Shown here: positions 20,917 through 53,094 of the stretch, in pieces
Position numbering within the stretch: position 1 is the first letter of the stretch
How the letters are laid out: each line of letters begins with the position of its first letter
From: Sparassis latifolia
Lineage: Eukaryota; Basidiomycota; Agaricomycetes; Polyporales; Sparassidaceae
Reading direction: 5' to 3'
DNA length: 64,000 nucleotides
Assembly: GCA_018466975.1 (NCBI GenBank)
Contig: CM031558.1
Span: forward strand, 1,674,001 to 1,738,000
Notes under the pieces: model-generated
The model's input: the letters and a program-made list of their open reading frames with translations, nothing else
Database searches by the model: none
Told to the model about the DNA's origin: nothing
Program-made: the position numbers and the translations under genes

Positions 20917-20972
20917 TCAGCTCCTGTCTAACATTTCTTGTCCCATAAGAAATATTGTAGCCTTCATCGTTG

Positions 20973-21707
20973 TCAGGGGCAGTCCCGAACATAATGATCA
21001 CCTCCACATCTGTGACATGTTCACCAGTTGGTTCATGGTCCTCGTTCATGCATATGTCCATCACGATAGGGGTGACTGCGATGCGAAGAAGTTGATGCAT
21101 GCAAGAAGGAGGGTTGCGATAGTGGGGATCGACCAGTAGGTACATGTGAACGAGAAGGGTGAGGTCGAACAGGAATTGGTTCTGGTGATGAGCGAGGAGC
21201 GGATGCAGGTCTCCCATTATTGGTATATCCAAGGATGTGCCCGATGTCTTCATCCCCATGCTCCCTCCAAATCTCCTGTGCTGTACGAGTGACCGTACTG
21301 CGCATCAATGACCAGACTTGGTTGACTCTGGTTCGGGCTCTACTCGTCCTTTCCTCTGCTGCAATGAGCTCTTGTCTGGCCGTCTGCATCCACTCGACCA
21401 TTTCTAACGCTCATTGCAAAGAAACCACCACCTGTCGATCTTGCGGGCAATTTCGTAGGGCAATGAGAATATCTGTGAAGTCGACTGGGATATGGATGGC
21501 AGAGATCAGATGTGTGGCAAATTCTTGTCCATCCGATGCATGACTGAGTTCGATTGAAGGTGAAGGTGATGAAGCGGATATGAAGGGTGTCTGTGTTCAA
21601 GAGGGTATTCCATTGACACGTGTAGGCAATGCAGGGGTGCCCATAATTGTGGAAGCGACTTCAGCGAGTATGTTGTGAACAAGGTCATCAATAGCAGAAG
21701 TGGGCAT
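20973..21707 (-). pseudogene. E3 ORF3: zinc-knuckle protein, decayed copy
   Basis: Copy of the E2 protein at 49,485-50,228. It starts at 21,707 with MPTSAIDDLVHNILAEVAST, passes through a segment with WMQTARQELIAAEERTSRAR and EIWREHGDEDIGHILGY, and ends with a zinc knuckle (CHRCGGDHYVRDCP, CX2CX3HX4C) and a TGA at 20,973-20,975. At least one stop and one frameshift near 21,590 interrupt it. Confidence 0.7.
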
Positions 21708-21733: not shown

Positions 21734-21883
21734 TTATACCTTTTGGTCATTAAGGGGATCGCGGTTATCTGTGATGTGAAATAGAATGTCGTGGATGTAG
21801 GTGACAATCAGATAGATGAAAATCCATTGGGCGATAAAGAGTATTCCCACAGAGATAAGAACTGCCTGGTCAGTTCCAGGCAT
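21734..21883 (-). CDS. E3 small ORF-b: 49-aa single-pass membrane protein
   Basis: It is intact, with the same length (49 aa) and position as the E2 ORF at 49,309-49,458. One hydrophobic helix (LISVGILFIAQWIFIYLIV) is followed by a polar tail (HDILFHITDNRDPLN). Its ATG overlaps the end of small ORF-a, as in E2. No family is recognised. Confidence 0.5.
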   Translation of the reverse strand: MPGTDQAVLISVGILFIAQWIFIYLIVTYIHDILFHITDNRDPLNDQKV

Positions 21884-22046
21884 CGTTCTGATCACCCCAG
21901 CCGTTAGCGTGTGGGTTGTCTTGTGTCAAGAGCGTGTGTTCGACGAGTCATCTGATAAGGATTCGGTGGTTGATCCAAAGGAAAGCAAGGGTCGTGCAGT
22001 GGAGGACAATTAGGAAGATAATGAGGAAGGCCATCATGGTAGTCAT
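21870..22046 (-). pseudogene. E3 small ORF-a: 58-aa membrane protein with one nonsense codon
   Basis: Same length and frame as the E2 ORF at 49,146-49,322. It has a hydrophobic N-terminal segment (FLIIFLIVLHCTTLAFLW) and a C-terminus ending GWGDQNDAWN. One CGA codon of E2 is TGA here (21,948-21,950). It lies about 20 bases downstream of pol. Confidence 0.5.
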
Positions 22047-25400: not shown

Positions 25401-25439
25401 TTTCAGAGCTAAAAAGGTTACCTAGTATACATGTGTAGT

Positions 25440-26875
25440 GGCCATAAAAAGTATTATAATAATGCATACAATTCTCACTTTGAAAGATGATATAAGAAGA
25501 CATTACAAATGTGTCTACAAGAATTACTACAAAAAATGTTACCAATGTGCCTATAAGAATCACCACAAAATTGATCCTAAAAACTGTTACAAATGTGCCT
25601 ACAAGAACCGCTACAAAAGATGACTCTAAAAGCGATTACAAATATGCCTAGAAGAATCGCTACAAAAAATGACTCTAAAAACTATTACAAATCTGCCTAC
25701 CAGAATCACTATAAAAAATGACCCTAGAAACTGTTACCAACATGCTTACAAGAATCACTACAAAAAATGATCCTAGAAACTGTTACAAATGCGCCTACAA
25801 GAATCACTACAAAAATTGTGAGCAACATGCCTATAAGAATCATTACAAAAATTGACCCTAGGTATTGTTACCAATGTGCCTACAAGAATCACTACAAAAG
25901 CTGTTACTAATGTGCCTATAAGGATCACTACAAAGAATGACCCTAGAAACTGTTACAAATGTGTATACAAGAATCACTACAAAAATTGACTCTAAAAACT
26001 GTTACAAATGTGTCTATAAGAACTGCTACAAAAAATGACCCTAGAAAATATTATAAATGTGTCTACAACAATCATTACAAAAAATGTTACCAATGTGCCT
26101 ATAAGAACCATTATGAAAAATAACACTACAAAGTGTTACACATGTGCCTATAAGAATCATTACAAAAATGACACTAGAAACTTTACAAATGTGTCTACAA
26201 GAATCACTACAAAAAAGATCCTAGAAACTGTTACTAATGTGTTTACAACAATCATTACAAAAAATGTTACCAATGTGTCTATAAGAACCACTATCAAAAA
26301 TAACACTAGAAAGTGTTACATATGTGCCTATAAGAATGACTACAAAAAATGTTACCAACGCACCTATAAGAATAACTACAAAAAATGACACTAGAAACTG
26401 TTACAAATGTGCCTGTAAGAATGGCTACAAAAAATAACCCTAGAGACTGTTACAAATGTGCCTATAAGAACCACCACAAAAAATGACACTAGAAAGTGTT
26501 ACATAAGTGCCTATAAGAATCATCACAAAAAATGACACTAGAAACTGTTACAAATGTGCCTATAAAAGTGACTATAAAAAATGACCCTAGAAACTGTTAC
26601 TAATAAGCCTATAAGAATCACTACAAAAAATGACACTAGAAACTGTTACAGATGGGCCTGTAAGAATCATTACAAAAAATGTTACCAACGCACCTATAAG
26701 AATTACCACAAAAAATGACACTAGAAAGTGTTACATATGTGTCTATAAGAATCACTACAAAAATGACCGTAGCAACTGTTACAAATGTACTATAATCACT
26801 ACAAAAAATGGCACTAGAAACTGTTACAAACATGCCTAGAAGAATCATTACAAAAAATAGTATGCTATCTAATTG
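25440..26875 (+). repeat. Minisatellite, units about 36-50 bp
   Basis: Some thirty diverged units of the form GTTACAAATGTGCCTATAAG, AATCACTACAAAAAATGAC, ACTAGAAACT fill 1.4 kb; some units lack the middle part. Open frames here (for example 26,035-26,388) are only repeat translations. Confidence 0.9.
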
Positions 26876-27024: not shown

Positions 27025-27029
27025 AATAT

Positions 27030-27258
27030 GTGGAACCCGACACGGGTCAGGAACACGGCAGAAGCAGACAGCGACGGAACGGGAACAAGACTTCGTTGCG
27101 TATAAGTAGAAGTAAGGAATACAGAATATTGGACATACCTTCGTTGCGTATAAGTAGAAGTAAGGAACGCAACGAAGGATGTTCGAACATGGTGTCGTCG
27201 CAAGCAAACAAGTACAAACAGTATGTGAGTATATGTGGTAAGTACGCGGCGTGCTTAC
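27030..27258 (-). repeat. E4 3' LTR (229 bp)
   Basis: Matches 32,134-32,362 with about three differences, all C/T. In element orientation it starts GTAAGC and ends GTTCCAC. It contains two copies of a 28-base unit starting CTTCGTTGCGTATAAGTAG. The flanking target duplication is AATAT (27,025-27,029 and 32,363-32,367). Confidence 0.9.
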
Positions 27259-27282
27259 ACTCTTCCCCACCATATTTCTTCA

Positions 27283-30200
27283 TTATTGACGAGCTTCCCA
27301 GACATCGAGAGCGGCGCAATCGAGGAGCTCGCGACGGGGAAGCCATTGATCGCCTTCCGCATCTCATCCTTTCCAGCGGACAAGATATTGGAGACCATGC
27401 CCGCGACGGCGCTGATCAATAATTCTATCGATCTCCCATTCCTCCGCACCTACTTCGGTGATAATTGGACCAGGGCGATCAGGTTGGTGCATCGGGAAGA
27501 GGAGGGGATCATTGGGGCGATAGCGTTCGAGTTGTGAAGAATGGAAGGTAGGGACGACGTTCATAGTCTCCGGCAGCTGTAGCGTATAGTGTGAGGTTTC
27601 AGGATATGCCGCGATGATCTCGTAAGGACTGTCGAAATGAGGCATGAATTTCGCTACACGAGTATCGCCACGTTGCATGTAATCGCGTCGGCGGTGCAGG
27701 GTGGACAGTAGAACCTTATCGCCAATCGTGAAGTGAGGGTCGGGGTCTCGATGTGCGTTAGCGCTATCCGCTTGAGCTACTTTAGGTGCAAGAAGGTTAT
27801 CTTGAGCCTCGAGAGTATCGACCTTGATGCAACGAATGAGATCTGCTGCGGTGCAAGCATCGAGTTCGGATGTGTGCGAAGCGATAGAGGTGACATCCAC
27901 GCGGAAGAGTGGAGGAATTATGCGTGGCAAGCGGCCCATCCTTAGCTGGAATGGGGTAAGGCCGACGGAAGCGTTGACTGTGTTCATAATGCAGAATCTG
28001 ACGTAAGGCAATGCTCGTGCCCAGCCAGTCTGGTTACGCTCGACATGGAAGCGGAGGCATTGGATTGTCGTCTTATTCGTGCGCTCGGAGAGGCCATCAG
28101 TTTGCGGGTGGAAGGAAGTGGACATTTTGTGCTTTACACCGGTGAGACGACACAGTGATTTCCAGAATGCAGAGATGAACTTCGCGTCGCGGTCTGAGAT
28201 GATGTCTTCGGGTAGGCCGTTCTCGCAGTACCATGCGTCGAAGAATAGCACAGCAAATTCTGACGCAGTGGTGTCAGTGCGAGTCGGAATGAGGCGGACA
28301 TCAGATCCGAGACAGTCAGTGACGGTCGCAATCGCATCGAATCCATTGTCTTCTGGGAGAGGACCGATGAAGTCGATGGTGATGGAACTACAGTGTGTGT
28401 CAGGGACAGGCAGGGGGTGGAGGGGCCTGGATGGTTTGTGGGTGTGCCCCTTGTTGCGCTGGCAGTCTGTACAAGTGGGGACGTATGCCTGTTTGAGATC
28501 ACGTCGCATATTGTGCCAGTAGTAAGCATCGCGGAGTGTCGCGTATGACTTCTCTGCTCCGAAGTGGCCGAGGGAGTCATGAGCAAGACGATATAAGCTT
28601 TCACGCAGATCACCATATGTGGGGATGACAAGACGTTCACCAAGGTAAAGCAGACCATCCTGCAGATGAACATCCGGAGTAGATTCTGTGTTCTGGAGAA
28701 GTTTCTGGCAGAAACTGTCAGTGGCATAGCCTAGGCGAATGTCAGCAAGGACGGAAGGATCTGTGTCAATGCGGAAGACTGCTGCGAGAATTCCCAGTTC
28801 TGCACGTGCAATGTCATCGTCGGTGTCGGGTGGGAGGCGCGATAACGCATCCGCGACAGTGTTCTCTTCTCCCGGAATGTAACAGATCTGAAAATCGTAG
28901 TCAGCGAGAAACTCTTGCCAACGTACTTGACGCCGGCTGAGGTCCCATTGTGACTGGAAGTTCTCGAGGGTCTTGTGATCTGTGTAAATGATAAATGGCG
29001 CACCGAGGAGATCGCTATGCCATTTCTTGAGTGCGCAGATGATCGCCAACATTTCTTTCTCGTGGGTCAGATATCGTGAAGCAGGACCCGAGATTTGTTG
29101 GGATTCAAAGACTACAGGTCGCGACATGACCCAGGTGGGACCTACGGATAGGACAGCACCAGTTCCCCATTCGCTGGCATCTGTTGTCACGTAGATCTTG
29201 TTATCACCGAGGTTGTCATGATCGACGGTGGTCAAGCATTCGCGGCTGAGTACGAGTTCCTTGATCCTCTCGAAGGCGTCTTGATGTCAGGATTCCCAAG
29301 TGGGAAACACCTTGTCGGCCGTCTTCAGTGTAAGAGGAGTGAGAACGGAGGTGTGTGCAGTGAGCTGAGGTAAGAATGAAGAGATGTACCATACAAGTCC
29401 GAGGAACGCACGGACATCTTTTGCGTTACGTGGAACTGGCCAGTCCATGATACGGGCAACCTTGTTGGGGTCTGCCTCGATTCCTCGGGCAGAGATGTGG
29501 TGTCCAAGGAAGTCGATTTCGGAACAAAAGAGGCTGGTCTTTTTGATGGAGCAGAATAGGTGAGCGTTGCGAAGTGCTTCAAGGACCGTGGCGACATTGC
29601 ATTCGTGTTCTTCAAGGGACTGAGACCAGATGATGATGTCATCTAGGTACACATGACAGATGCGGCCGATGTGTTGGTGCAATGCAGAGGTCATACGACG
29701 TTGATGTGTGGAGGGAGCGTTGCGACATCCTTGGGGCATTACCAGCCACTCATAGAGACCAAACGGAGTGTGAACCACTGTGTACTTCACATCGTCGGGG
29801 TGTACGCGAGTCTGGTAAAATGCATTGGTCATGTCCAACTTTCCCCAAATCTTTCCTTTTGCGCAGTCGGTAAGAATGTCGTCAATGCGGGGGAGGGGGA
29901 AGCGGTTGGGGACGGTGTTCTGGTTGAGTTGGCGGTAGTCATTGACCCAACGTGGAAGTGCGGTCGGGTCAGACTTAGGGATGATGAAAGCGGGTGCCAC
30001 ATATTCGCTTGAGGACGGGCGCATACAACCGGCATCAAGGTGTTGTTGCAAGAGAGTCTGCCAAGCATCTCGATACTTGCACGGGCAAGCGTAGGAGCAA
30101 GTGGCGATGACTTTACTGGGGTCCTTGAGCAAGAATCGATGGTAGACATCAGTGGGCAAGTCAGCAAGTGGCGGTGTGCCAGTGGGGAACCGGTCAATGA

Positions 30201-30850
30201 ATTGTTGCTTGTACTTGAGATCAAGGTCGAGTAGATGTTGTTGTGATGCGAGTTGTTCGATACGAGTGCAAACGAATGGTACTGGGTCAGCGGCCAGGAC
30301 AGTTTCGCATTGACGATCAACAATCTGTCACTGTGCACGGAGACGTTCTCTCAGTTCCTCGATCATACTGCATGTGGCTGCCACCACACGAGACGACGAG
30401 GAGAGAGGATGACTTGTGGGCACTCGTTTAGGTGTTGTCGGGGTTGCAAGAAGTGCATATCTCGATTCCTTCTGGGTCACAGTGCGGTGTTCGTCATCAA
30501 CAATAAGTCTGTTTGCAGCCATGAAGGGTAGACCTAATAGTACAGGCATCTCTAGGCCAGGCATGATGAGAGCAGGAACGACAAGAGAACGGAAAGAATG
30601 GTCCAGAGAGTCCAACTTTAACTTCACCCAATGCGATGATAATGAGACCGACTTCCCCCCATCCTTCGCGGTATGAAAGGCGCGTCCAGATGAGACAGGC
30701 TTCGGAAGAGGCCGACGGCAGAGACCGAGTTTGTGAACGAGAGATTCACTAATCAGTACTGCATGGGAGCCATCGTCAATTAAGGCACGAATGTGAAGGG
30801 GAGATTCGACTTTTGGTCCGAGAACAGGACGTCTGGTTTACAGGAAAGAC
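27283..30850 (-). pseudogene. E4 pol: protease, RT, RNase H, integrase, chromodomain
   Basis: One frame runs from about 30,845 to 27,283 with only three stops, all TGA (30,328-30,330, 29,287-29,289, 27,364-27,366). Order: retropepsin-like segment ALIDDGSHAVLIS (DDG where DSG/DTG is usual), RT with FGLYEWLVMPQGCRNAPST and active site VYLDDIIIWS, RNase H (VTTDASEWGTGAVLS, YTDHKTLENF), integrase zinc finger (HDSLGHFGAEKS to CTDCQRNKG), catalytic core (TIDFIGPLPED, IISDRDAKFISAFW, HPQTDGLSERTNK), and chromodomain (EWEIDRIIDQ, LQYLVRWKG, then DAEGDQWLPRREL after the last TGA). It copies genomic RNA into DNA and inserts it; the chromodomain would steer insertion to marked chromatin. Confidence 0.92.
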
Positions 30851-32074
30851 GGCTGCGACATAGGCAGGTTCCTCGCTGGCATCCTGGACCACAGCAGCGG
30901 CGACCTTGCGCTTTCCGTCCTTGACTGCTTTGATACGATCTGCGACGTTAGCCTCCGAAATTGGGGTGTAGGAAGCAGCATCAGGGAAGCCATTCGGGCA
31001 TGTCGCCGAGGTATGGTCCTGTTCAGGTAAGCAGCATTTGTAGCAACCGCGGTACTTCTGAAGGACGTTGCGCTCATCCTGAGTTATTTTCTGCAGTTTA
31101 GTGAAGGTGCTGCCAACGTTGTCGGCAGCAGAGCGTTTGGCACCAGCAGATGAGGAGGACTTATCAGTGTTTGTCTTATTGGCCAGGGGACGTGCCGTGA
31201 AGTGTTTAGCGCATTCCTTGGCAACAGCGTTGGCGACGGCGGTGTTGACGTGGTCGTCTTCCTCGCAGAGTTCCTCGTCGAGTTCCTGGACTGCGAGGAG
31301 CCATTGGGAAAAAAGGACAATATCGTTGAGTTCACGTGCATGATGTGGGGAGTTCATTTTCTTCTTCAGGCGGGCATTGACACCTGCGCGAAGCTGCTGA
31401 TGGAGCTCGGTGTTGTCCAGGGCCTGTGTTGTGCGAGAGATGACGGCTGCCTTGGACTGTATCTCATTCGCCCAGTCCCAGAAGGGATGATCACCTTGGC
31501 GCGCTCCCATAACCTCATCGCGGATGGTGCTATCCCAGTCATGGGGGAGGTAAGTGGCGCGTACTTCCATCATGAAATCCTCGAAGGAAAGAGCATCGAG
31601 GCGTCCTTGGTGGGCATCGTACCACATGGCAAGGTGGGGGTAATCCATGCGCGACGCTACCATCGATACCTGAAGTTCATCTGCGAGCTGTGCCTTGCGG
31701 AAGTGGCGTTCACATGCGGTCTGCCAAGTATTGATGACCGACGGTGTGAGATCGCCGGGAAGGAGCTTCGGTGCTTGGCTCTCCTTGGGGAACTCAACGG
31801 TCGCGACTTTCTTCGTCATCGTAGGTGGGTATATGCGCATTGGTTCGGTGGCGGCAGTTTCCACGGGTGCTAGTTCGTGGATTATGGGGGATGGAGGAGA
31901 TGAAGAAATGTCGGAGAGGGAGGAAACAGAGGAGAGGGAAGGTGATATGGTCGCGTCGTCGATGGCAGTCAACAGCGCGGTGTCTTGTTCTAGGTGAGCT
32001 CGGCTTCGTGTCCTCAGGGGGACAACGACGGTTGGGAGATAACGATTCGACGGAATGGTTGGAGGCGGTTGCAC
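30776..32074 (-). CDS. E4 gag
   Basis: A 432-codon frame. The N-terminus is Ser/Pro-rich; the capsid-like part has LLPGDLTPSVINTWQTACER, MWYDAHQGRLDALSFEDFM and FWDWANEIQSKAAV. A zinc knuckle with odd spacing follows (CYKCCLPEQDHTSATC, CX2CX6HX4C). No ATG was found at the very start (GTG at 32,074); initiation may use the internal MRIYPPT region or an unseen intron. It overlaps pol, which lies one base further on (+1 frame), near TTTCCTGTAAACC. Confidence 0.8.
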   Translation of the reverse strand: MQPPPTIPSNRYLPTVVVPLRTRSRAHLEQDTALLTAIDDATISPSLSSVSSLSDISSSPPSPIIHELAPVETAATEPMRIYPPTMTKKVATVEFPKESQAPKLLPGDLTPSVINTWQTACERHFRKAQLADELQVSMVASRMDYPHLAMWYDAHQGRLDALSFEDFMMEVRATYLPHDWDSTIRDEVMGARQGDHPFWDWANEIQSKAAVISRTTQALDNTELHQQLRAGVNARLKKKMNSPHHARELNDIVLFSQWLLAVQELDEELCEEDDHVNTAVANAVAKECAKHFTARPLANKTNTDKSSSSAGAKRSAADNVGSTFTKLQKITQDERNVLQKYRGCYKCCLPEQDHTSATCPNGFPDAASYTPISEANVADRIKAVKDGKRKVAAAVVQDASEEPAYVAAVFPVNQTSCSRTKSRISPSHSCLN

Positions 32075-32133
32075 ATGGTGGTGACCCGTGTTACGAAACG
32101 GTTCAGCAGTGTTTGTTCAACGTTCAAAAAAAA

Positions 32134-32362
32134 GTGGAACCCGACACGGGTCAGGAACATGGCAGAAGCAGACAGCGACGGAATGGGAACAAGACTTCGT
32201 TGCATATAAGTAGAAGTAAGGAATACAGAATATTGGACATACCTTCGTTGCGTATAAGTAGAAGTAAGGAACGCAACGAAGGATGTTCGAACATGGTGTC
32301 GTCGCAAGCAAACAAGTACAAACAGTATGTGAGTATATGTGGTAAGTACGCGGCGTGCTTAC
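32134..32362 (-). repeat. E4 5' LTR (229 bp)
   Basis: See the paired LTR at 27,030. A TATAAGTAG motif within it is a plausible promoter element. The internal side begins with a run of T (element orientation) and no clear tRNA primer-binding site. Confidence 0.9.
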
Positions 32363-32367
32363 AATAT

Positions 32368-41006: not shown

Positions 41007-42951
<1,945 letters not shown>

Positions 42952-43592
42952 TGTTACAACGCTCCTCACTTGTGGCGCGTCTTTTCTTTTTCTTTTCCTT
43001 GTTCCCTTTACGTTACTAGACCACGTGATCCAACACGTGACTCATCGGAGCGCAACCTCCGATTCTTTATCCAGATGTCCAGAACCCCTAGTCTAGGGTT
43101 ACACCGGATCCAACTCCGGACCTTCTTCTTATCGCACATGCAAGACGTGCATGTATGCCTCATCTTTACCTCGTTCTGATACACGACTCGTTATCCCCAT
43201 TAGTACTGATTATCTCTCACGACCTTACTCAGCTTTCCCATACATATTACTTCCTCGCTGTTACCCTGCTTAGACATCGTTTCACCTTATCTAGCCAATG
43301 AACGATCCTGCATTACTGCGTAGTACTGCGGATACCTTTTGTATAAGTAGACGACCTTGTCGAGCTGGATCCCCATCTCGACCTGGTTACCATTAAACCA
43401 GCTTTTCACTTGCCTTTGACTGAGATCGACCGTCAGTAGCAGACAGCTACTACGAGTCATAAGAACGAACTCTGATCGACCTTCAGTGCGAGGACATCGC
43501 CAGAAGTGTCACTTAAACGGACTTGTGTCTTAGACTAAGACCTTGTCTCGTGACGACTCGACTAGACGCTCGTGTTTCGCTGCCGCATAACA
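42952..43592 (+). repeat. E2 5' LTR (641 bp)
   Basis: It starts TGTTACAACG and ends CATAACA. It is preceded by CTTCT (42,947-42,951), repeated after the 3' LTR (50,913-50,917). A TATAAGTAG motif near 43,342 may be the promoter. It differs from the 3' LTR by a handful of substitutions and four one-base gaps. Confidence 0.95.
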
Positions 43593-43937
43593 TTAGGTCG
43601 AGATCTTGTTACTCTCTGTGACTTCCTAAAGTCTAACAACGAACTACCGACCGGACCGAACCTTGAAGACTAAACGATACACCCGATTCGATTGCTAAAG
43701 CACCGTTTGAGATTACTCTGTAATCGAGGTAGCTGAAGGGATAGACTGATCACTCATCTTCAGAGAGGGTTCTGTCTGAGAGACCAATAGGCCGAGGAGG
43801 CTGAGGTAATCACTCGAGCAATCAGCAAATAGGTGTATCAGTTTGAAGACAGAAGACACTCTACGGGCTTGTTAGCCGACGACGAACGAACCCACTTAGT
43901 TAAGGACGGTGTGCAGTCTACGTGTAGACATAGGCCA

Positions 43938-45292
43938 CACAGAAGAATTTATCCACGCTGGATTTTAACTACATCAACCCGACCGCTCTTCCAGAGCAGT
44001 ACCATGAGCACCTCCCATCCCAAGCAGAGTGGAGCACAGAACGAAACGCACATTTCATAGGAGGAAGGCCTGTATTCATCAGGCCAGACAATCACAACTT
44101 CGACTACTCCCCAGAGGAATTTGAAAGGACACTTCCCCATAATCTTGGTGGAATAGTGCTCCAGCACATCGCAGACAGCAGTATAACGACCTCCTATCCA
44201 GGAGAAAGACCAGACGCCCCTTGGAACCCCCCTGCCCAGAATCCTGTACCCCAACCGACTCTTGCACCAATCGTACCCGATTACATACCACCGATGGCTA
44301 CAGTTACCATGGATGAAGGACGTCACCATGTTAGCCAGAAGGAACTTGGTTTTAGAAAACCCGAGATCTTCAACGGTTCAGACCGTTCGAAGCTTAGGGA
44401 ATTTATAAACCAATGCAAGAACTACATGGCCGGAAATAGCCATGTCTACCAGGAGGACAATCAGAAGATCGCATTCGTGCTATCGCACATGCAAGGAGGA
44501 ACAGCAGGATCATGGGCACAGAGCTTCATAGAAACGGAACTCACCAATGACGACTTCCTTTCTTATGGGAGTTGGAGAGACTTCATTGCAAGTGTGAACA
44601 AAGCATTTGGCGATGAAAATATTGAAGAAACCACTCGCACCTTGCTGCGTAACATCAAGCAAGGAACTCGTACTGCGGACGACTACATTGCCGAATTCCG
44701 ATCGCTTGAATCCAAGGCGAAACTAGAAGATGCCGGAAATATCGAGTATTTCAAGTGGGGGCTTAACGACCCACTCCGACAAAGGATATATGGGATGGAA
44801 AGCATGCCCAAGACACTTGACAAGTGGTACGAATACGCCTCGCAGTTTGATAACCAATGGAGATCTGCTCAGATCTTCAAGCGAGGAGCCACTACGACGA
44901 CTCGAGGAAAGGGCCGATCTGTCCATCGTCCCTACTACTCAGCTTCTGCAAAGGATCCAAACACGATGGATGTTGATCGTGTCAATATCTCGCGCTTATC
45001 CCCGGACGAGCGACAAAAGAGAATGAAAGAAGGATTATGTTTCCTATGCGGAAAGAAGGGCCATATAGCCAACGACAGACAATTCCACCCCCAGTCTGGA
45101 AGTTTCACCCGTGCTAGAACAATACAGCCCGGGTTAGACACAGACACGATCACATGGATCAAGAAGATGCGAGAAGACCTCGCACAGAAGAAGGAGACGT
45201 CGAAGGAAGAAACCAGAGAGGAACAGATCACCTATGTGCGAAACATCTTCAACGATATGACTGATGAAGAACGAACCCAATTGGGTTTTTGA
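43938..45292 (+). CDS. E2 gag
   Basis: The structural protein that would form the particle. The frame is open from about 43,938 (after an AG acceptor-like site; E3 also lacks an ATG here, so an intron or non-ATG start is likely) to TGA at 45,290-45,292. The N-terminal part has [20 protein letters not shown]; the capsid part has [35 protein letters not shown] and [20 protein letters not shown]. Near residue 280 of the 44,156 frame is a defective zinc knuckle ([14 protein letters not shown]: the final Cys is Arg), also defective in E3. The stop is preceded by the slippery heptamer GGGTTTT. Confidence 0.88.
45283..45292 (+). promoter_or_regulatory. -1 ribosomal frameshift site between gag and pol
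   Basis: Gag ends TTG GGT TTT TGA. G GGT TTT fits the X XXY YYZ slippery pattern immediately before the stop, and a -1 slip enters the pol frame exactly (TTG AGA CGA). The same GGGTTTTTGA is retained in E3 (near 51,045). Confidence 0.7.
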
Positions 45293-48200
45293 GACGATGG
45301 CCACTAGTAATGCATGGACCGTCGCATCTTACCGTATCTCCCCTCATTATTTGTAACACTAGCGGAAATTCAATCACTGTGAATATTTCGTTGGGAGAGA
45401 AGGAAGATGTTACAACAGAAGCCTTGATCGATTCCGGTGCAGCCGAAACATTCATGAACATTCATTTTGCGGAAGAAAACAATTTCATCAGATGGGAATT
45501 ACCGAAACCAATTAAAGTCATGAATGCAGATGGCACACCAAATCAAATGGGCACCATTACTCATTGTACCTGGAAGATGATGAAAATCGGAGGAAGGAAG
45601 ACACTTACTCGCTTCCTCTTAACCGGCATTGGCAAAGAAAACATACTTCTCGGCATGCCGTGGCTTAAACGCCTCAATCCAATGATCAACTGGGAAACCG
45701 GTGACTTTTGGTTTGGTAAAGACGCCAAATGGCCACCGAAACCCACCGTCGAAGATGCACCAGATGAAGAAGTTTCGATTTTTAAAGAAGATGGACTCCC
45801 AGAGTTAATCACCACCGAAACTTCCCCTACCTCGTTTGGACATTCAGAATCTATCAGAGAAATCATGGCCGATAACACTGAGCATGGCGAGTTACCCGCA
45901 GTGCGGAATGATACCGAACCAGATGACCCACCATCAGAACCCCCTATGGATCAGCTCGATGATGACGATCTAGTTATATCCTATATCGCAGGAGAGCCAG
46001 TTATTGGGATATTTGAACCCATCAGGAAGGAGTCACCTTTGACGAATGAAGAGACTGAAACCGCAGTCTTCACCATACGAAGAGGCCCCGCCATTGGAAG
46101 AATGACACACAGTACTCGATCCCCATTATTCTGTAATGCACAGAATACGGTCTTTTACAAACCATCTGGTAAATCACAAGAATTGGCACAACAGGCACAC
46201 AAGGAAGCATCAGCTGTAGACAAACCCAAAACCGTCGAGGAGTTGGTCCCTAACTACCTCCACGATTTGAAGTCCGTCTTTGAAAAGAAAGCAGCTGAAC
46301 GCTTTCCAGAAACCAGGCCTTGGGACCACGCCATTGACTTGAAACCCGATTTTATTCCACATGACTGTAAAGTCTATCCATTATCGCTCAAAGAACAAGG
46401 AGCGATGGATGACTTCCTGGAAGAAAATCTGCGAAAAGGATACATCCGACCGTCGAAATCTCAAAAGAAAGACGGAGCACTACGTCCCTGTCAGGATTAC
46501 CGATACCTGAATGAAGGAACGGTGAAGAACGCCTATCCTCTTCCGCTCATCTCTGACCTTATGGATCAATTCAAAGGCGCATCGATCTTTACGAAAATGG
46601 ATTTACGCTCCGGATATAACAATGTCAGAATCAAAGATGGTGACCAATGGAAGGGCGCATTTAAGACAAATCGCGGACTTTTCGAACCTATGGTCATGTT
46701 CTTTGGACTCTGCAACTCCCCGGCGACTTTCCAAATGATGATGAACGCACTCTTCAAGGACATGATTGATGAGGGATGGATAGTCATTTACATGGATGAT
46801 ATCCTCATCTTCTCAAACAATTTGAAAGAACATCACATTCGAACCCGACACGTACTCCAACGACTCAAAGACAACGACTTATTCCTTAAACCGGAAAAGT
46901 GTTTCTTTGACGTTAAAGAAGTCGAATTCCTAGGCATGATCATTCGAGAAAACTACATTGGCATGGACCCTATCAAACTTAAAGGAATTGCAGAATGGCC
47001 TGAACCAAGCACGGTAAAAGGTGTTCGCTCTTTCCTAGGATTTGGAAACTTCTATCGGAAGTTTATTGCCAACTTCTCGGATATTGCCAAACCATTGACG
47101 AATCTTACGCGCACTGCCGCTGGATCTCCACCTTTTGAATGGACAACAGAATGTCAGACAGCTTTCGACACATTGAAGCAACGATTCAGTACCGCCCTAG
47201 TACTGTTACTGCCTGACAAGGCAAAACCCTTTATTGTTGAATCCGACACTTCCAAGTTTGCTACGGGTGCAGTTTTACGCCAAGCCGACATCAATGGAGA
47301 CCTCCATCCTTGTGCCTACATTTCACAGACGCTCAATCCAGCTGAACGGAACTACGAAATCTACGACCGCGAACTCCTCGGAATCATTCGAGCTCTCGCT
47401 GAATGGCGCCATTATCTTGAAGGCTCTCCCCATCCCGTCGAAGTTCGCAGTGATCACAAGAACCTCACGTACTTCCGTACAGCTCAGAAGTTAAACCGCC
47501 GACAAGCACGATGGAGTCTCAAATTATCACAATTTGATCTTCACCTCATCCATGTCCCTGGCACTCAGATGATCCAATCTGATGTGCTATCTCATCGTAA
47601 CGGACTCGATGACAGTGAAAGTGACAACGAAGATCGCGTTCTTTTACCCAATGCACTATTCGTGCGGTCCATTTCCCCGACACTATTCAATGAAATCAGG
47701 AATCACGCAGCAAAAGACCTCATTGTTCACGAAGCCCTCGAAGCGATTGCGCACAAAGGGCCATTCCCCATGAAATCATCGCCTTCCGACTGGGAAGTTC
47801 GCGATGGTGTCATCCTTTACAAGGGAAAAATCTACGTTCCACCATCCGAAACTCTTCGTCGTGACCTCGTTCGACTACATCACGACTCCCCTGCCATGGG
47901 TCACCCTGGAAAGTTCAATACCCTTGAACTGTTACGTCGTGAATTCTGGTGGCCCGGCATGTATACATTTGTCTACAATTATGTTGAAGGCTGTGCCGCC
48001 TGTCAACAAATGAAACCGAATACTCATCCAACTCGTATTCCTTTGGAACCAATTCCCGCCGACCCACACGCATTACCATTTTCCTGTTGCACCACCGATT
48101 TTATTACCGACCTCCCCGTTTCCAACGGTTTTGATTCAATTATGGTCATGGTAGACCATGACCTTACGAAGGGGGTGGTTCTTACGCCCTGCCTCAAAAC

Positions 48201-49128
48201 GATCACAGCCGAAGGAACGGCCAAGATTTTTCATGACAAAGTATACTCGCGATTTGGATTACCCGACCGAATCATCTCGGATAGAGGACCTCAATACGCA
48301 TCCAAGGTCTTCCAAGAGTTAAATCGACTACTCCAGATCAGATCATCAATGAGCACAGCTTATCACCCTCAGACGGACGGAGAAACAGAGCGAGTCAACC
48401 AGGAGCTGGAAATCTATCTTCGACTCTATTGCGGAAACAACCCTGAAACATGGGCTGACCGCCTGCCAGACCTCGAGTTTTGTCATAACACAAGGGAACA
48501 CTCGGCACGGAAGATGAGCCCATTCCGCATTATGATGGGATACGAACCACGTGGACTCCCTTCCGTATTCCCGACCACGAACATTCCATCGGTTGAATCC
48601 AGGCTTGACATGTTGCAGAAGATAAGGCTAGAAGCACTAGCCATGCACGAGTTAGCCCGACAACAGATGGTGGACCGAGTCAGACAAGGATCGCCGAAGT
48701 TTACGTTAGGACAGGAGGTCTGGCTAGACTCGAGGAACCTGAAGGTCAATTACGCCTCGCGCAAGATAGCACCAAAGCGTGAGGGGCCATTCGAAATTGT
48801 CGAAGTCATCGGACCAGCCAACTATCGTCTCAAACTCCCGAAGACCTGGCGAGTTCATTCCGTATTCCACGCCGCCCTTCTATCTCCTTATCGCGAAAAT
48901 GACATACATGGTCCGAATTACGTGAACCCACCACCTGATGTCGTTGATAACGAAGAAGAGTACGAAGTCAAAGCCATCCTGAATCACAAGACGTACCGAG
49001 GTCATCTGAGGTACTTAGTCAAGTGGAAGGGATATTCTTCAGCAGAAAACTCGTGGGAACCTACCCACAATTTACAGAATGCCAAGCGAATCCTCGATGC
49101 ATATAAAAGGACCAGAAGAATCCAGTAG
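45289..49128 (+). CDS. E2 pol: protease, RT, RNase H, integrase, chromodomain
   Basis: Uninterrupted 1,279-codon frame. The protease DSG lies at residues 48-50 ([11 protein letters not shown]). RT spans roughly 340-540 with active site YMDD at 501-504; RNase H is around 650-760 ([24 protein letters not shown]). The integrase zinc region is about 862-910 ([14 protein letters not shown] to CAACQQMK) and its core about 930-1040 ([36 protein letters not shown]). A complete C-terminal chromodomain lies at about 1222-1275 ([28 protein letters not shown]). Relative to E3, nine residues are missing before KKDG in RT (PSKS-Q-KKDG instead of PSKS-10 residues-KKDG), in a conserved fold element, so autonomous activity is doubtful. 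It is expressed by frameshifting from gag. Confidence 0.95.
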
Positions 49129-49145
49129 AGGAGAAGAAACCCGGA

Positions 49146-49322
49146 ATGACTACCACGACGGTTTTCCTCATCATCTTCCTAATCGTCCTCCACTGCACAA
49201 CCCTCACTTTTCTTTGGATCATCCACCGAATCCTTATCAGACGACTTGTCGAACACACACTCTTCACGCGAGACAGCCCGCACGCTAACGGCTGGGGTGA
49301 TCAGAACGATGCCTGGAACTGA
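49146..49322 (+). CDS. E2 small ORF-a: 58-aa membrane protein
   Basis: ATG 17 bases after the pol stop. A hydrophobic N-terminal stretch (VFLIIFLIVLHCTTLTFLWI) of about 20 residues is followed by a basic segment (HRILIRR) and a polar tail ending GWGDQNDAWN. By composition this would be a single-pass or signal-anchor protein. It overlaps ORF-b by 14 bases (ATGCCTGGAACTGA contains its stop and the ORF-b start). Length, frame and overlap are conserved in E3. I recognise no family; an envelope- or viroporin-like role is only a guess. Confidence 0.55.
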   Translation: MTTTTVFLIIFLIVLHCTTLTFLWIIHRILIRRLVEHTLFTRDSPHANGWGDQNDAWN

Positions 49323-49458
49323 TCAGGCAGCTCTTATCTCTGTGGGAATACTCTTTATCGTCCAATGGATTTTCATCTATTTGATTATTACCCGGATCCA
49401 TGACATTCTATTTCACATCACAGATAACCGCGATCCCCTTAACAACCGAAAGGTATAA
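49309..49458 (+). CDS. E2 small ORF-b: 49-aa single-pass membrane protein
   Basis: Starts MPGTDQAALISVG, with one hydrophobic helix (ISVGILFIVQWIFIYLIIT) and a polar tail (DILFHITDNRDPLNNRK). It is intact in both E2 and E3 at exactly 49 aa. Translation could be coupled to ORF-a through the overlapping stop/start. No family is recognised. Confidence 0.55.
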   Translation: MPGTDQAALISVGILFIVQWIFIYLIITRIHDILFHITDNRDPLNNRKV

Positions 49459-49484
49459 AAGGAGGAGAAGACGATATATCATCA

Positions 49485-50228
49485 ATGCCCACTTCTGCTA
49501 TAGACGACCTTGTTCACAATATACTCGCTGAAGTCGCCTCCACAATTATGAGCATACCCGCATCGCCTACGCTTGTCAATGGAGTACCCTCTCAAGCACA
49601 GACACCCTTTATCCGCGCCTCATCGCCCTCACCTTCTATCGAACTCAGTCACGCATCGGACGAACAAGAATTTGCCACACGTCTGGTCTCGGCTATCCGT
49701 GTTCCTGTCGACTTCACAGATATCCTCGTCGCCTTACGAAATCGCCCGCAAGATCGACAAGCGGTGGTTTCCATGCAACGAGCATTAGAAATGGTCGAGT
49801 GGATGCAGACGGCTAGACAAGAGCTCATCGCAGCAGAGGAAAGGACGAGTAGAGCCTGAACCAGAGTCGACCAAGTCTGGTCATTAATGCGCAGTACGGT
49901 CACTCGTACAGCACAGGAGATTTGGAGAGAGCATGGGGACGAAGACATCGGACACATCCTCGGATACACCACTAATGGAATACCCGCATCCACTCCTCGC
50001 TCGTCGCCAGAACCAATTCCCGTTCGACCTTGCCCTCCTCGTTCGCACATACCCAGTGGACGATCTCCGTTATCCCAACCATCTTTCTCGACCGCATCCA
50101 CTTCTTCGCATCGCAGTCATCCCTACAGGGATGGACGTATCCCCGAACAAGGATCACGAACCAGCCGGCGGGCATGCTACAGATGTGGAGGAGATCATTA
50201 TGTCCGCGACTGCCCCCGACGACGATGA
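49485..50228 (+). pseudogene. E2 ORF3: zinc-knuckle protein after pol, one nonsense codon
   Basis: A 247-codon frame with a single TGA at 49,857-49,859 where E3 keeps CGA. The N-terminal half is predicted helical (MPTSAIDDLVHNILAEVAST, VVSMQRALEMVEWMQTARQE, LIAAEERTSRA). A Ser/Pro/Arg-rich linker (PRSHIPSGRSPLSQPSFS) follows, and the C-terminus has an intact CCHC zinc knuckle (CYRCGGDHYVRDCP, CX2CX3HX4C). Gag of the same element has lost the last Cys of its own knuckle, so ORF3 may supply nucleic-acid binding in trans; that is inference. Position after pol is unusual for Ty3 elements. Confidence 0.65.
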
Positions 50229-50275
50229 AGATCACAATATTTCTTGTGAGACAAGAAACGTTAGACGGGAGCTGA

Positions 50276-50912
50276 TGTTACAACGCTCCTCACTTGTGGC
50301 GCGTCTTTTCTTTTTCTTTTCCTTGTTCCCTTTACGTTACCAGACCACGTGATCCAACACGTGACTCATCGGAGTGCAACCTCCGATTCTTTATCCAGAT
50401 GTCCAGAACCCTAGTCTAGGTTACACCGATCCAACTCCGACCTTCTTCTTATCGCACATGCAAGATGTGCATGTATGCCTCATCTTTACCTCGTTCTGAT
50501 ACACGACTCGTTATCCCCATTAGTACTGATTATCTCTCACGACCTTACTCAGCTTTCCCATACATATTACTTCCTCGCTGTTACCCTGCTTAGACATCGT
50601 TTCACCTTATCTAGCCAATGAACGATCCTGCATTACTGCGTAGTACTGCGGATACCTTTTGTATAAGTAGACGACCTTGTCGAGCTGGATCCCCATCTCG
50701 ACCTGGTTACCATTAAACCAGCTTTTCACTTGCCTTTGACTGAGATCGACCGTCAGTAGCAGACAGCTACTGCGAGTCATAAGAACGAACTCTGATCGAC
50801 CTTCAGTGCGAGGACATCGCCAGAAGTGTCACTTAAACGGACTTGTGTCTTAGACTAAGACCTTGTCTCGTGACGACTCGACTAGACGCTCGTGTTTCGC
50901 TGCCGCGTAACA
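50276..50912 (+). repeat. E2 3' LTR (637 bp)
   Basis: Paired with 42,952-43,592. It ends GCGTAACA followed by the CTTCT target duplication, after which E3 pol resumes in reverse. Confidence 0.95.
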
Positions 50913-52440
50913 CTTCTGTTGCAACGTCTTCCTTCTCTCCCAACAAAATATTCACAGTGATTGAATTTCTGCTAGTGTTACAAATAATGAGGGGAGATAC
51001 AGTAAGATACGACGGTTCATGCGTTACTAGTGGCCGTCATTTCAAAAACCCAACTGGGTTCGTTCTTCATCAGTCATGTCATTGAAGACGTTTCGCACAT
51101 AGGCAATCTGTTCCTCTCTGGTTTCTTCCTTCGGTATCTCCTTCTTCTGTGCAAGGTCTTCTCGCATCTTCTTGATCCATGTAATCGTATTGGTGTCCAA
51201 CCCGGGCTGTACTGTTCTAGCACGGGTGAAACTCCCAGACTGGAAGTGAAATTGTCTGTCATTGGCCATATGACCCTTCTTTCTGCATAGGAAACATAAT
51301 CCTTCTTTCATTCTCTTCTGTTGCTCATCCGAGGATAAGCGCGAGATATTGATACGATCAACATCCATCGCGTTCGGATCCTTCGTAGAGGTCGAGTAGT
51401 AGGGACAATGGGTAGATCAGCCTTTCCCTCGTGTCGTCGTAGTGGCTCCTCGCTTGAAGATCTGGGCAGATCTCCATTGGTTGTCAAACTGCAAGGTGTA
51501 TTCGTACCACTTGTCAAGTGTCTTGGGCATGCTTTCCATCCCATATATCCTTTGTCGGAGTGGGTCGTTAAGTCCCCACTTGAAATATTCGATATTTCCG
51601 GCATCTTCAAGTTTCGCCTTCGGTACAAGCGATCGGAATTCGGCAATGTAGTCATCCACGGTACGAGTTCCTTGCTTGATGTTATGCAGCAAGGTACGAG
51701 CGGTTTCTTCAATGTTTTCATTGCCAAATGCTTTGTTTACGTCTCTAATGAACTCCGTCCAACTTCCATAAGAAAGGAAGTTGTCATCGATGAGTTTCAT
51801 TTTTATGAAACTCTGCGCCCATGATCCTGCTGTCCCTCCTTGCATGTGCGACAGCGCAAATGCAATCTTTTGATTGTTCTCCTGGTAGACATGGCTATTT
51901 CCAGCCATGTAGTCCTTGCATTGGTTTATAAATTCCCTGAGCTTCGAACGGTCTGAACCGTTGAAGATCTCGGGTTTTCTGAAACCAAGTTCCTTCTGGC
52001 TAACATGGTGATGACTTTCATCCATGATAATTGTAGCCACTGGTGGGACATTAATGGGTACGATTGGTGCAGGAGTCGGTTGTGGTATGGGATTCTGGAC
52101 AGGGGGGTTCCAAGGGGCATCTGGTCTTTCTCCTTAATAAGAGATCGGTATACCGCTGTCTGCGATATGTAGTAGTACAAGCTCTCCAACGTTATGGGGT
52201 AGAGTTGCTTTGTAGTCGCCACCTGGGTGATCAATGCGTTGATCTGGTCTAATGAATAAAGGTCGTTTGTTTAAAATGTGTACGTTTCTCTGTGCGTCCC
52301 ACTCTGCCTGAGATGGGAGGAGATCGATGTACTGCTTGAAAAGAGCAGTCGGGTTGATAAAGTTCAAATCCAGTGTGGATAAATTCTTCTGTGTGACCTA
52401 CATCTACACGTAGACTGCACACCATCCTCAACTAAGTGGG
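50913..52440 (-). pseudogene. E3 gag and first codons of pol
   Basis: Pol codons for the [11 protein letters not shown] region (50,913-51,055) are preceded by gag: [20 protein letters not shown] to the stop at 51,042, and upstream [20 protein letters not shown] to ATTTTRGKG (52,040-51,417) with a stop between them. The N-terminal block [20 protein letters not shown] runs to about 52,440. The knuckle reads [14 protein letters not shown], lacking the last Cys as in E2. The GGGTTTTTGA frameshift site is kept. The leader is interrupted by the hAT element at 52,656. Confidence 0.88.
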
Positions 52441-53094
52441 TTCGTTCATCATCGGCTAACAAGCCCGTAGAGTGTTTTCTGTCTTCAAACTGATACACCT
52501 ATTTGCTAATTGCTCGAGTGATTACCTCAGCCTCCTCAGCCTATTGGTCTCTCGGACAGACCCCTCTCCGAAGATGAGTGATCAGTCTATCCCTTCAGCT
52601 GCCTTGATTACAAAGTAATCTCAAACAGCCCTTTAGCAATTGAATCTGGATGTATCTAGGGAAGGACATGGGTTAGGGTTAGACCACGGTGTTTGCTTAA
52701 CGGGTCTGGCGGTGACGGGTACAGGTTACATGATATCAACCCTCTGTCATACCACTGACCCGAGCCACGGTTGGGCGGGTTCATACAGTTGGGCGGGTTC
52801 ATACGGTTTGGCAGGTTTGTGGCGGGTTATCTTCTCAGGTATGCATGTCATGTTTGCATCATCTACAAACACACTTTGCTATGTCACACTTTTGGCAATT
52901 GTTATGTACAAGTGCCTTTCTTGTGTCCACTGCACGCTTTGCTACCTCGGTTTTGGTGACTTATGGTTACGATTGCCCTTGCATCATAGTTACTGCCTCT
53001 TTCACCTATTGCTTTGATGCTTACCAGTGCTTTCGTTCTCTGGTATGTGCTTTGATTTCTTCTTCCCCATGCCATTGAGCCTGCCACCCTGAGG

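What the first reader, a model, noticed from the sequence alone, without database searches (positions are those of the whole stretch)
49146..50228. Chromovirus family with three extra ORFs between pol and the 3' LTR
After pol, E2 has a 58-aa ORF with a membrane helix, a 49-aa ORF with a membrane helix overlapping it by 14 bases, and a 247-codon zinc-knuckle ORF. E3 has all three in the same order; the two small ORFs keep identical lengths and the same stop/start overlap (21,734-22,046, 20,973-21,707). Differences between copies leave hydrophobic segments hydrophobic. Ty3 chromoviruses usually end at pol; an accessory module of paired small membrane proteins plus a nucleic-acid-binding protein would be new to me.
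Basis: partly seen in the sequence, partly recalled or inferred. Interest (0 to 1): 0.85.

Follow-up and report, generated by a model that had tools for sequence, protein, structure and literature searches.

The report
Mushroom retrotransposon with three accessory genes
A jumping element repeated some 80 times in a mushroom genome carries, behind its usual genes, two tiny membrane-protein genes and one zinc-knuckle protein gene that natural selection has kept working, which suggests that this element needs more than the standard copy-and-paste machinery.

Summary
The module is real and protein-coding. Host: a Sparassis mushroom. The element is a Ty3-type chromovirus. Behind pol lie ORF1 (58 aa, one membrane helix), ORF2 (49 aa, one membrane helix, 14-base overlap) and ORF3 (247 aa when intact, CCHC-like knuckle). 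Of the 75 best RNase H hits, 65 have ORF1 downstream; the other 10 are a sister family. Variants shared by several copies show purifying selection in the three frames, as in pol; the competing 69-aa frame shows none. ORF2's support is the weakest.
Corrections: in the window neither ORF3 is intact and E3's ORF1 has a stop; intact copies exist elsewhere.
New here: the sister family (58-63% identical at the end of pol) lacks the membrane ORFs, but 12 of 12 places carry the N-terminal half of a larger ORF behind pol; in the copy read it has 464 aa and three knuckles. In the E2 family Gag's own knuckle lacks its fourth ligand in 21 of 21 copies read; the sister's Gag keeps it in 3 of 3.
Best reading: ORF3 is a detached nucleocapsid-like protein, ORF1/ORF2 a membrane-anchoring pair. 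Function is inferred. Extra ORFs in LTR elements are known; this set is a new variant.

The parts
42952..43592 (+). 5' LTR of E2 (TGTTAC...TAACA), TATAA at 43342
   Evidence: blastn against the 3' LTR, 632 of 641 aligned columns identical, 4 of the other 9 being gap columns; TATAA position
42947..42951 (+). target-site duplication CTTCT, left copy (right copy 50913-50917)
   Evidence: flanks printed
43595..43604 (+). putative self-priming primer-binding site, complementary over 10 nt to LTR 43375-43384, which lies 33 nt after the start of the LTR TATAA
   Evidence: exact 10-mer reverse-complement match, no match of 11; reading as Tf1-type self-priming is inference from recalled knowledge
44156..45292 (+). 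gag (from the first listed start codon; the stop-to-stop frame has 452 codons)
   Evidence: Pfam Retrotrans_gag, DUF4939, Ty3_capsid over cut-off for 44201-45289; frame length
45038..45079 (+). Gag zinc-knuckle remnant CX2CX4HX4R: fourth ligand is Arg
   Evidence: E2 and 20 further copies
45283..45289 (+). heptamer GGGTTTT directly before the gag stop (probable -1 frameshift site into pol)
   Evidence: sequence; intact in 18 of the 20 copies printed, L108 and L112 showing a one-base gap in it; pol frame is -1 to gag
45289..49128 (+). pol: protease, RT, RNase H, integrase, chromodomain
   Evidence: Pfam
49146..49322 (+). ORF1, 58 aa, one predicted membrane helix (about residues 6-26) followed by basic residues
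49309..49458 (+). ORF2, 49 aa, one predicted membrane helix (about residues 8-27); overlaps ORF1 by 14 bases
49485..50228 (+). ORF3 frame, 247 codons; in E2 interrupted by TGA at 49857-49859; intact in other copies
50175..50213 (+). ORF3 zinc knuckle CX2CX3HX4C
   Evidence: alignment of 17 proteins: three Cys invariant, His in 16 of 17; Pfam zf-CCHC sub-threshold
50276..50912 (+). 3' LTR of E2
21870..22046 (-). E3 ORF1 (one in-frame TGA)
21734..21883 (-). E3 ORF2 (intact, 49 aa)
20970..21707 (-). E3 ORF3 frame (stops inside; two TGA in the N-half)
49079..49288 (+). rejected alternative 69-aa frame overlapping the end of pol and ORF1; open in both window copies but without purifying selection

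Best explanation
The stretch is a set of three real accessory genes of a multi-copy chromovirus of Sparassis. ORF3 works as a separate, nucleocapsid-like nucleic-acid-binding protein: its long helix lets it oligomerise, its Ser/Pro/Arg-rich tail and zinc knuckle bind element RNA or cDNA. In this family it backs up or replaces the knuckle of Gag, which has lost its fourth ligand. ORF1 and ORF2 are single-pass membrane proteins, made from one message (ORF2 by leaky scanning or termination-reinitiation at the 14-base overlap), that tether Gag/ORF3 assemblies to an internal membrane. Shown: coding and purifying selection (firmly for ORF1 and ORF3, on balance for ORF2), membrane-type segments, CCHC-like motif, Gag ligand change, a knuckle ORF at the same place in a sister family. 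Inferred: RNA binding, oligomerisation, tethering, and the mode of expression.
For: Selection: pooled NG86 dN/dS in the claimed frames 0.21/0.26 (ORF1), 0.40/0.22 (ORF2), 0.27/0.33 (ORF3) for 20 divergent / 52 young copies, pol 3' control 0.19 (only 4 of the 20 had pol) / 0.29. Codon-model likelihood against omega 1: ORF1 2dlnL 49.7 and ORF3 121 in 25 copies; in 53 young copies ORF1 10.1, ORF2 10.6, ORF3 61, pol 90, best grid omega 0.45 for each. Variants present in 4 or more of 73 copies give omega about 0.26 (ORF1), 0.43 (ORF2), 0.28 (ORF3) against 0.38 for pol, while single-copy variants give 0.66-0.73. Of the 75 best of 150 RNase H hits 65 have ORF1 downstream, 63 of them at 1.59-1.66 kb; the other 10 belong to the sister family. 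Gag knuckle ends in Arg in 21 of 21 copies read (19 of 20 fetched loci, L119 not aligning; a second window copy; E2) and in the S. crispa protein P0006, but is CX2CX4HX4C in 3 of 3 sister copies and in P0008. ORF3's spacing CX2CX3HX4C equals that of Gag knuckles in 5 of the 8 Gag relatives I looked at (P0009, P0011, P0012, P0014, P0017; 8 of 35 hits fetched). A sister copy carries a 464-aa three-knuckle ORF directly after pol; its N-terminal 227 residues match beside pol in 12 of 12 sister places.
Against: No biochemical or expression data. The knuckle is below Pfam's cut-off. The sister has both an intact Gag knuckle and the 3' knuckle ORF, so the 3' ORF did not arise to replace Gag's. Gag keeps the other three ligands and a His three residues after the Arg (21 of 21), so it may still bind zinc. 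ORF2: the divergent set does not reject omega 1 (2dlnL 2.5; best grid value 0.7), and its variants in 2-3 copies are mostly non-synonymous (14 to 5 in 73 copies, 6 to 1 in 54). ORF3 variants in 2-3 copies also show only mild constraint (0.62-0.63). ORF3 resembles the sister ORF only weakly (BLASTP E 0.007; SW 72 with 0 of 2000 shuffles reaching it, highest 71; a global alignment 2 of 1000; hhalign probability 3%). The ORF3 model is poor (mean pLDDT 48). Tethering is not tested at all.
Confidence: 0.5

Rival explanations
1. Env substitute: ORF1 and ORF2 are a minimal, highly reduced or independently gained membrane module that lets particles leave or enter cells or vesicles (for instance at hyphal fusion), with ORF3 as matrix-like adaptor.
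For: Position between pol and 3' LTR is the env position (recalled); two small ORFs with membrane segments kept by selection. For bdelloid LTR elements small ORF3s with transmembrane regions were suggested to be fusogenic (PMC5408684, passages read).
Against: 58 and 49 aa leave no room for a glycoprotein ectodomain; no family in Pfam and no convincing PDB relative; no membrane ORFs in the sister family.
Confidence: 0.18
2. Regulatory or anti-silencing module: ORF3 binds host or element RNA to block small-RNA silencing or quelling, and ORF1/ORF2 place it on a membrane.
For: A knuckle protein separate from Gag; plant Tekay additional-ORF proteins were compared with dsRNA-binding proteins by their authors (PMC11728184, passages read). 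The copies show TGA-type decay as might be expected of methylated elements (stops).
Against: No relative named as a silencing suppressor among the hits; nothing here shows activity on host RNA.
Confidence: 0.17
3. The ORFs are not read separately but fused, by splicing or by a frameshift in the 14-base overlap, giving a two-helix membrane protein or one ORF1-ORF2-ORF3 protein.
For: Tight packing; the 14-base overlap has the lowest mean pairwise diversity of the regions measured (0.020 against 0.115 at ORF1 third positions, 73 copies); ORF1 and ORF3 share a frame. Gene models of S. crispa in the protein database splice ORF3 onto downstream sequence (P0003, P0005), though that may be a prediction artefact.
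Against: Overlap conservation is expected from double coding; the ORF2 start ATG is present in 72 of 73 copies and the ORF3 start in 73 of 73, which a fusion would not need.
Confidence: 0.12
4. The frames are open by chance or by inheritance from a recent common copy and encode nothing.
For: Copies are young (most of the 80 first loci 95-98% identical to E2), and a second frame of 69 aa is open at the same place in both window copies. ORF2 fails one of its likelihood tests.
Against: Frame-specific selection: claimed frames 0.21-0.40, while the 69-aa frame gives 1.12/0.82 and, by frequency class, 1.16, 4.57 (23 to 2) and 0.95 in 73 copies and 1.19, 1.29 and 0.64 in 54; in the codon model its likelihood is best at omega above 1 in the divergent set and flat around 1-1.5 in the young set. 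Forward off-frames of the three ORFs range 0.48-2.14, mostly 0.7-1.6.
Confidence: 0.03

Closest known systems
Fungal chromoviruses (Ty3/gypsy with chromodomain), survey of Novikova and others 2010, PMC2864245 (section 5 and passages read)
   Same: gag, pol with protease, RT, integrase and chromodomain, LTRs; the Figure 3 legend names an additional ORF of unknown function, and the text notes extra dUTPase domains in Postia placenta elements
   Different: The text I read gives no paired small membrane ORFs and no separate knuckle protein; which element bears the additional ORF is not in that text
Sister chromovirus family in this genome (L121 and L122 read, 10 more places by search)
   Same: pol 58-63% identical at its end; knuckle ORF directly behind pol; TGTTACAAC, as at E2's LTR start, 40 bases after the ORF in the copy read
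   Different: no ORF1/ORF2; knuckle ORF 464 aa with three knuckles in the copy read; Gag knuckle canonical in 3 of 3 copies read
Plant LTR elements with additional ORFs (Tekay, Athila, Retand; PMC11728184 and PMC11963269, passages read)
   Same: extra ORFs outside gag-pol kept in most copies; some with a transmembrane helix (Athila)
   Different: other proteins, sizes and hosts; Tekay's lies 5' of gag; Retand's are mostly antisense
Bdelloid LTR elements with ORF3 (PMC5408684, passages read)
   Same: extra ORF3, some small with two hydrophobic regions and a coiled coil
   Different: 220-230 aa single proteins, or env, GDSL or DEDDy proteins; no separate knuckle protein in the passages read (the word zinc occurs 0 times)

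Membership tests
Ty3/gypsy chromovirus | pol order protease, RT, RNase H, integrase | tested here: met
   Pfam hits in that order (gag-asp_proteas 27.8 bits just under its cut-off 28.2, RVP_2 21.2 over its cut-off 20.3)
Ty3/gypsy chromovirus | chromodomain at the C-terminus of integrase | tested here: met
   PF00385 55.8 bits, cut-off 25.1, residues 1225-1274 of 1279
Ty3/gypsy chromovirus | LTRs with TG...CA ends and short target-site duplication | tested here: met
Ty3/gypsy chromovirus | position within a named clade in an RT tree | not tested
   no reference set of named clades at hand
LTR elements with additional ORFs | ORF outside gag-pol, kept in most copies and under selection | tested here: met
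env-bearing retroelements (errantivirus/retrovirus-like) | large membrane glycoprotein with ectodomain and fusion machinery | tested here: not met
   58 and 49 aa, no Pfam family, no PDB relative for ORF1 and only E 0.27 or worse for ORF2
CCHC zinc-knuckle (nucleocapsid) proteins | CX2CX4HX4C or accepted variant spacing | tested here: met
   CX2CX3HX4C, spacing seen in 5 of 8 Gag relatives viewed
CCHC zinc-knuckle (nucleocapsid) proteins | Pfam zf-CCHC over the curated cut-off | tested here: not met
   12.1 bits against 20.8
CCHC zinc-knuckle (nucleocapsid) proteins | zinc and nucleic-acid binding | not testable with these tools
   needs purified protein

The most novel reading that the evidence does not exclude
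A chromovirus lineage that has moved its nucleocapsid function out of Gag: Gag's knuckle is dead and a separate 3' gene supplies the RNA chaperone in trans, while two newly gained overlapping membrane micro-proteins anchor assembly. The lineage shows the steps: a sister with intact Gag knuckle plus a three-knuckle ORF, then loss of the Gag ligand and gain of the membrane pair.
Probability: 0.22. Interest if true: 0.8.

Novelty: new variant of a known kind. Interest (0 to 1): 0.6.

Why it matters
If ORF3 is a detached nucleocapsid, RNA packaging by a Ty3-type element can be split between two proteins, which single Gag-Pol elements such as Ty3 or Tf1 do not do (recalled). The membrane pair would give fungal elements a membrane step that fungal retrotransposons are usually thought to lack (recalled). 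Because many near-identical copies and a sister family without the membrane genes sit in one genome, of an edible and culturable mushroom (recalled), gain and role of the genes can be studied by comparison and by expression of single proteins.

Tried and rejected
Rejected: the alternative 69-aa frame at 49079-49288 (open in both window copies, no purifying selection; omega 1 is rejected for it in 25 copies too, 2dlnL 19.9, but with the optimum above 1). ORF1 and ORF2 as tandem duplicates: I saw a shared H-x4-R-D pattern by eye, but hhalign finds no similarity. ORF3 as a copy of Gag: no Pfam gag hit in it; origin open. Internal promoters: TATAAAA occurs 44 bases before the ORF1 start (no variant in 73 copies) and 31 before the ORF3 start (its last A is G in 8 of 73), but the first lies in pol codons and the sister has TACAAAA there; left as a weak lead. 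Splicing into ORF1: no convincing branch point seen by eye; not tested further. Leaky scanning: E2 has no ATG between the ORF1 and ORF2 starts, but other copies have up to ten such positions, the commonest in 11 of 73. PHROGs gave nothing usable. The viral-contig scan with ORF3 found no relative. Protein searches with ORF3 alone and as a profile found only Sparassis crispa proteins and one ENA protein; ORF1, ORF2 and the sister ORF were not searched in that database (cap spent). Paper searches that could have shown a similar module; I saw none in the listings, but the library lacks most subscription papers, supplements could not be read, and no fungal genome other than this one could be searched. 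A whole-family iqtree run timed out without output and was replaced by smaller sets; the script printed its table and then ended with an error while saving. The pol control in the divergent set rests on 4 of 20 copies, because only those had pol fetched. Of 102 extracts (100 loci plus two window copies) 77 distinct sequences were aligned; 4 (L076, L092, L098, L100; large gaps) were left out, leaving 73; one search left out L084 as well and used 72; searches used 25.

Full report
WHAT IT SITS IN. The window is C7:1674001-1738000 of a 41.4 Mb, 22-contig genome. Protein matches put it in Sparassis, at or near S. crispa: ORF3 finds only four S. crispa proteins and one unnamed ENA protein, and Gag finds an S. 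crispa protein at 95%. E2 is a complete element at 42952-50912: LTRs of 641 and 637 bases (632 of 641 aligned columns identical, 4 of the other 9 being single-base gaps), TSD CTTCT, gag, a GGGTTTT heptamer directly before the gag stop with pol in the -1 frame (heptamer intact in 18 of 20 further copies), and pol with RT, RNase H, integrase and chromodomain. A 10-base stretch just after the 5' LTR is complementary to LTR bases 33 nt after the start of the TATAA, which I read as self-priming (inference).

THE OBSERVATION. Two corrections: ORF3 of E2 has an in-frame TGA at codon 125, and E3 has stops in ORF1 and ORF3. Family-wide, of 76 rows examined (75 loci and E3; E2 not among them) ORF1 is full length in 43, ORF2 passes the full-length test in 67 (54 at 49 aa, 10 at 46 aa, 3 at other lengths), ORF3 in 26 (23 of 245-247 aa, 3 running on). 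Of the 75 best of 150 RNase H hits, 65 have ORF1 downstream, 63 of them at 1.59-1.66 kb and 2 at about 2 kb.

ARE THEY GENES? For ORF1 and ORF3 the tests agree; for ORF2 they are mixed but on balance positive. (a) Pooled dN/dS, 20 divergent / 52 young copies: ORF1 0.21/0.26, ORF2 0.40/0.22, ORF3 0.27/0.33, pol end 0.19 (4 of the 20 had pol) / 0.29; forward off-frames 0.48-2.14; the antisense frame that shares third positions is also low (0.23-0.53), as expected, and a second antisense frame goes down to 0.47 in ORF2. (b) Codon models: omega 1 is rejected in 25 copies for ORF1 (2dlnL 49.7) and ORF3 (121) but not ORF2 (2.5); in 53 young copies it is rejected for ORF1 (10.1), ORF2 (10.6), ORF3 (61) and pol (90). 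Best grid omegas: ORF1 0.3 divergent / 0.45 young, ORF2 0.7 / 0.45, ORF3 0.45 / 0.45, pol 0.45 young. (c) Frequency classes in 73 copies: single-copy variants are weakly constrained (0.73, 0.72, 0.66; pol 0.67; 69-aa frame 1.16), those in 4 or more copies strongly: ORF1 0.26, ORF2 0.43, ORF3 0.28, pol 0.38, the 69-aa frame 0.95. This is what genes needed during transposition, then released after insertion, should show. Against it, variants in 2-3 copies give 1.11 for ORF2 (14 non-synonymous to 5) and 0.63 for ORF3. (d) Start codons: ORF1 ATG in 72 of 73, ORF2 72 of 73, ORF3 73 of 73. The 14-base overlap is the least variable of the regions measured (0.020).

WHAT THE PROTEINS LOOK LIKE. ORF1 and ORF2 have one hydrophobic segment each in every gap-free row (69 of 69; 68 of 68); by the positive-inside rule (recalled) both would have the C-terminus in the cytosol (inference). 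Neither has a relative in Pfam; ORF1 has none in the PDB at E up to 10, ORF2 only hits of E 0.27 or worse, mostly light-harvesting membrane helices. hhalign finds no similarity between them. ORF3: AlphaFold gives a low-confidence model (mean pLDDT 48) with a long helix 88-150; a tail rich in Ser, Pro and Arg; a CX2CX3HX4C knuckle with the three Cys invariant and His in 16 of 17. Its best PDB hits are mostly knuckles: MPE1 E 0.016, RBBP6 0.8, RECQL4 2.2, HIV nucleocapsid 5.9-7.6; two UPF0297 chains at 1.4 match elsewhere. Pfam zf-CCHC E 0.22, under the cut-off.

THE SISTER FAMILY. The ten RNase H hits without ORF1 all belong to a second family whose pol end is 58-63% identical. In the copy read (L121 plus L124) the pol stop is followed after 9 bases by a 464-aa ORF with three Cys/His knuckles read by eye, and 40 bases after its stop comes TGTTACAAC, as at the start of E2's LTR. 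The N-terminal 227 residues of this ORF match beside pol in all 12 sister places, several with stops; three more degenerate places (C12 at 76-79%, C15 and C14 at 53%) also lie beside pol-end matches. No ORF1 or ORF2 match lies at the 12 places (E up to 0.001). Between two sister copies the frame gives pN/pS 0.26, the other forward frames 0.78 and 2.05. ORF3 and the sister ORF share position and layout; sequence similarity is weak: BLASTP E 0.007, Smith-Waterman 72 against a maximum of 71 in 2000 shuffles, a global alignment reached by 2 of 1000 shuffles, and hhalign probability only 3%. Pfam finds no knuckle in the sister ORF pieces.

GAG HAS LOST A LIGAND. In 21 of 21 readable copies of the E2 family (E2, one more window copy, 19 of 20 fetched loci; L119 did not align) Gag's knuckle reads C-x2-C-x4-H-x4-R. 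The S. crispa protein P0006 has the same; P0008 has Cys, the Lyophyllum protein P0007 His; the sister's Gag has Cys in 3 of 3. So the knuckle outside Gag is older than, or independent of, the loss, and the E2 family now has its only complete CCHC-type motif that I saw in ORF3. A His three residues after the Arg is present in all 21 and could stand in; I cannot exclude that.

HOW IT MOST LIKELY WORKS. ORF3 as nucleocapsid-like partner of Gag and ORF1/ORF2 as membrane anchors is my first choice (0.5 for the whole statement; that the ORFs are genes, above 0.95 for ORF1 and ORF3 and about 0.85 for ORF2). Expression could be by a subgenomic message with leaky scanning or reinitiation; at -3 ORF2's ATG has A (73 of 73), ORF1's mostly G (70 of 73), ORF3's mostly T (69 of 73), but nothing here shows a transcript.

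KNOWN OR NEW. Additional ORFs in LTR elements are known in plants and rotifers (passages read) and noted in fungal chromoviruses (section 5 read). I saw no description of a paired membrane micro-protein set plus separate knuckle protein in the listings of the searches named in Tried and rejected. Hence: new variant of a known kind.

Noticed in passing
42092-42955 and 50913-52656: E2 is inserted, with TSD CTTCT, into an older copy of the same family on the minus strand (nested insertion).
   Followed up: partly
C19:12822-17141 of G000 and window 47215-51533: Contig C19 shows the same arrangement (E2-like copy followed by a minus-strand gag at the same distance), so C19 may be an allelic or duplicated stretch; its ORF3 N-half has no stop.
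   Followed up: no
family-wide: Most in-frame stops listed in decayed copies are TGA, which would fit C-to-T change at CGA codons, as by cytosine methylation or a RIP-like process.
   Followed up: no
50396-50451: The 3' LTR of E2 differs from the 5' LTR by four single-base gaps in short runs of C or G, which looks like long-read assembly error; some frameshifted copies may be sequencing artefacts.
   Followed up: no
27025-32363: A second LTR element on the minus strand (direct repeats 27025-27259 and 32129-32363) whose pol frame reaches to 27364, leaving hardly any room for extra ORFs: a control without the module.
   Followed up: partly
25434-26860: Long tandem array with mostly 49- and 36-base spacing next to the broken 5' side of E3.
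   Followed up: no
49102-49108 and 49454-49460: TATAAAA occurs shortly before ORF1 (no variant in 73 copies) and before ORF3 (last A varies, G in 8 of 73); could be internal promoters or chance within codons.
   Followed up: partly
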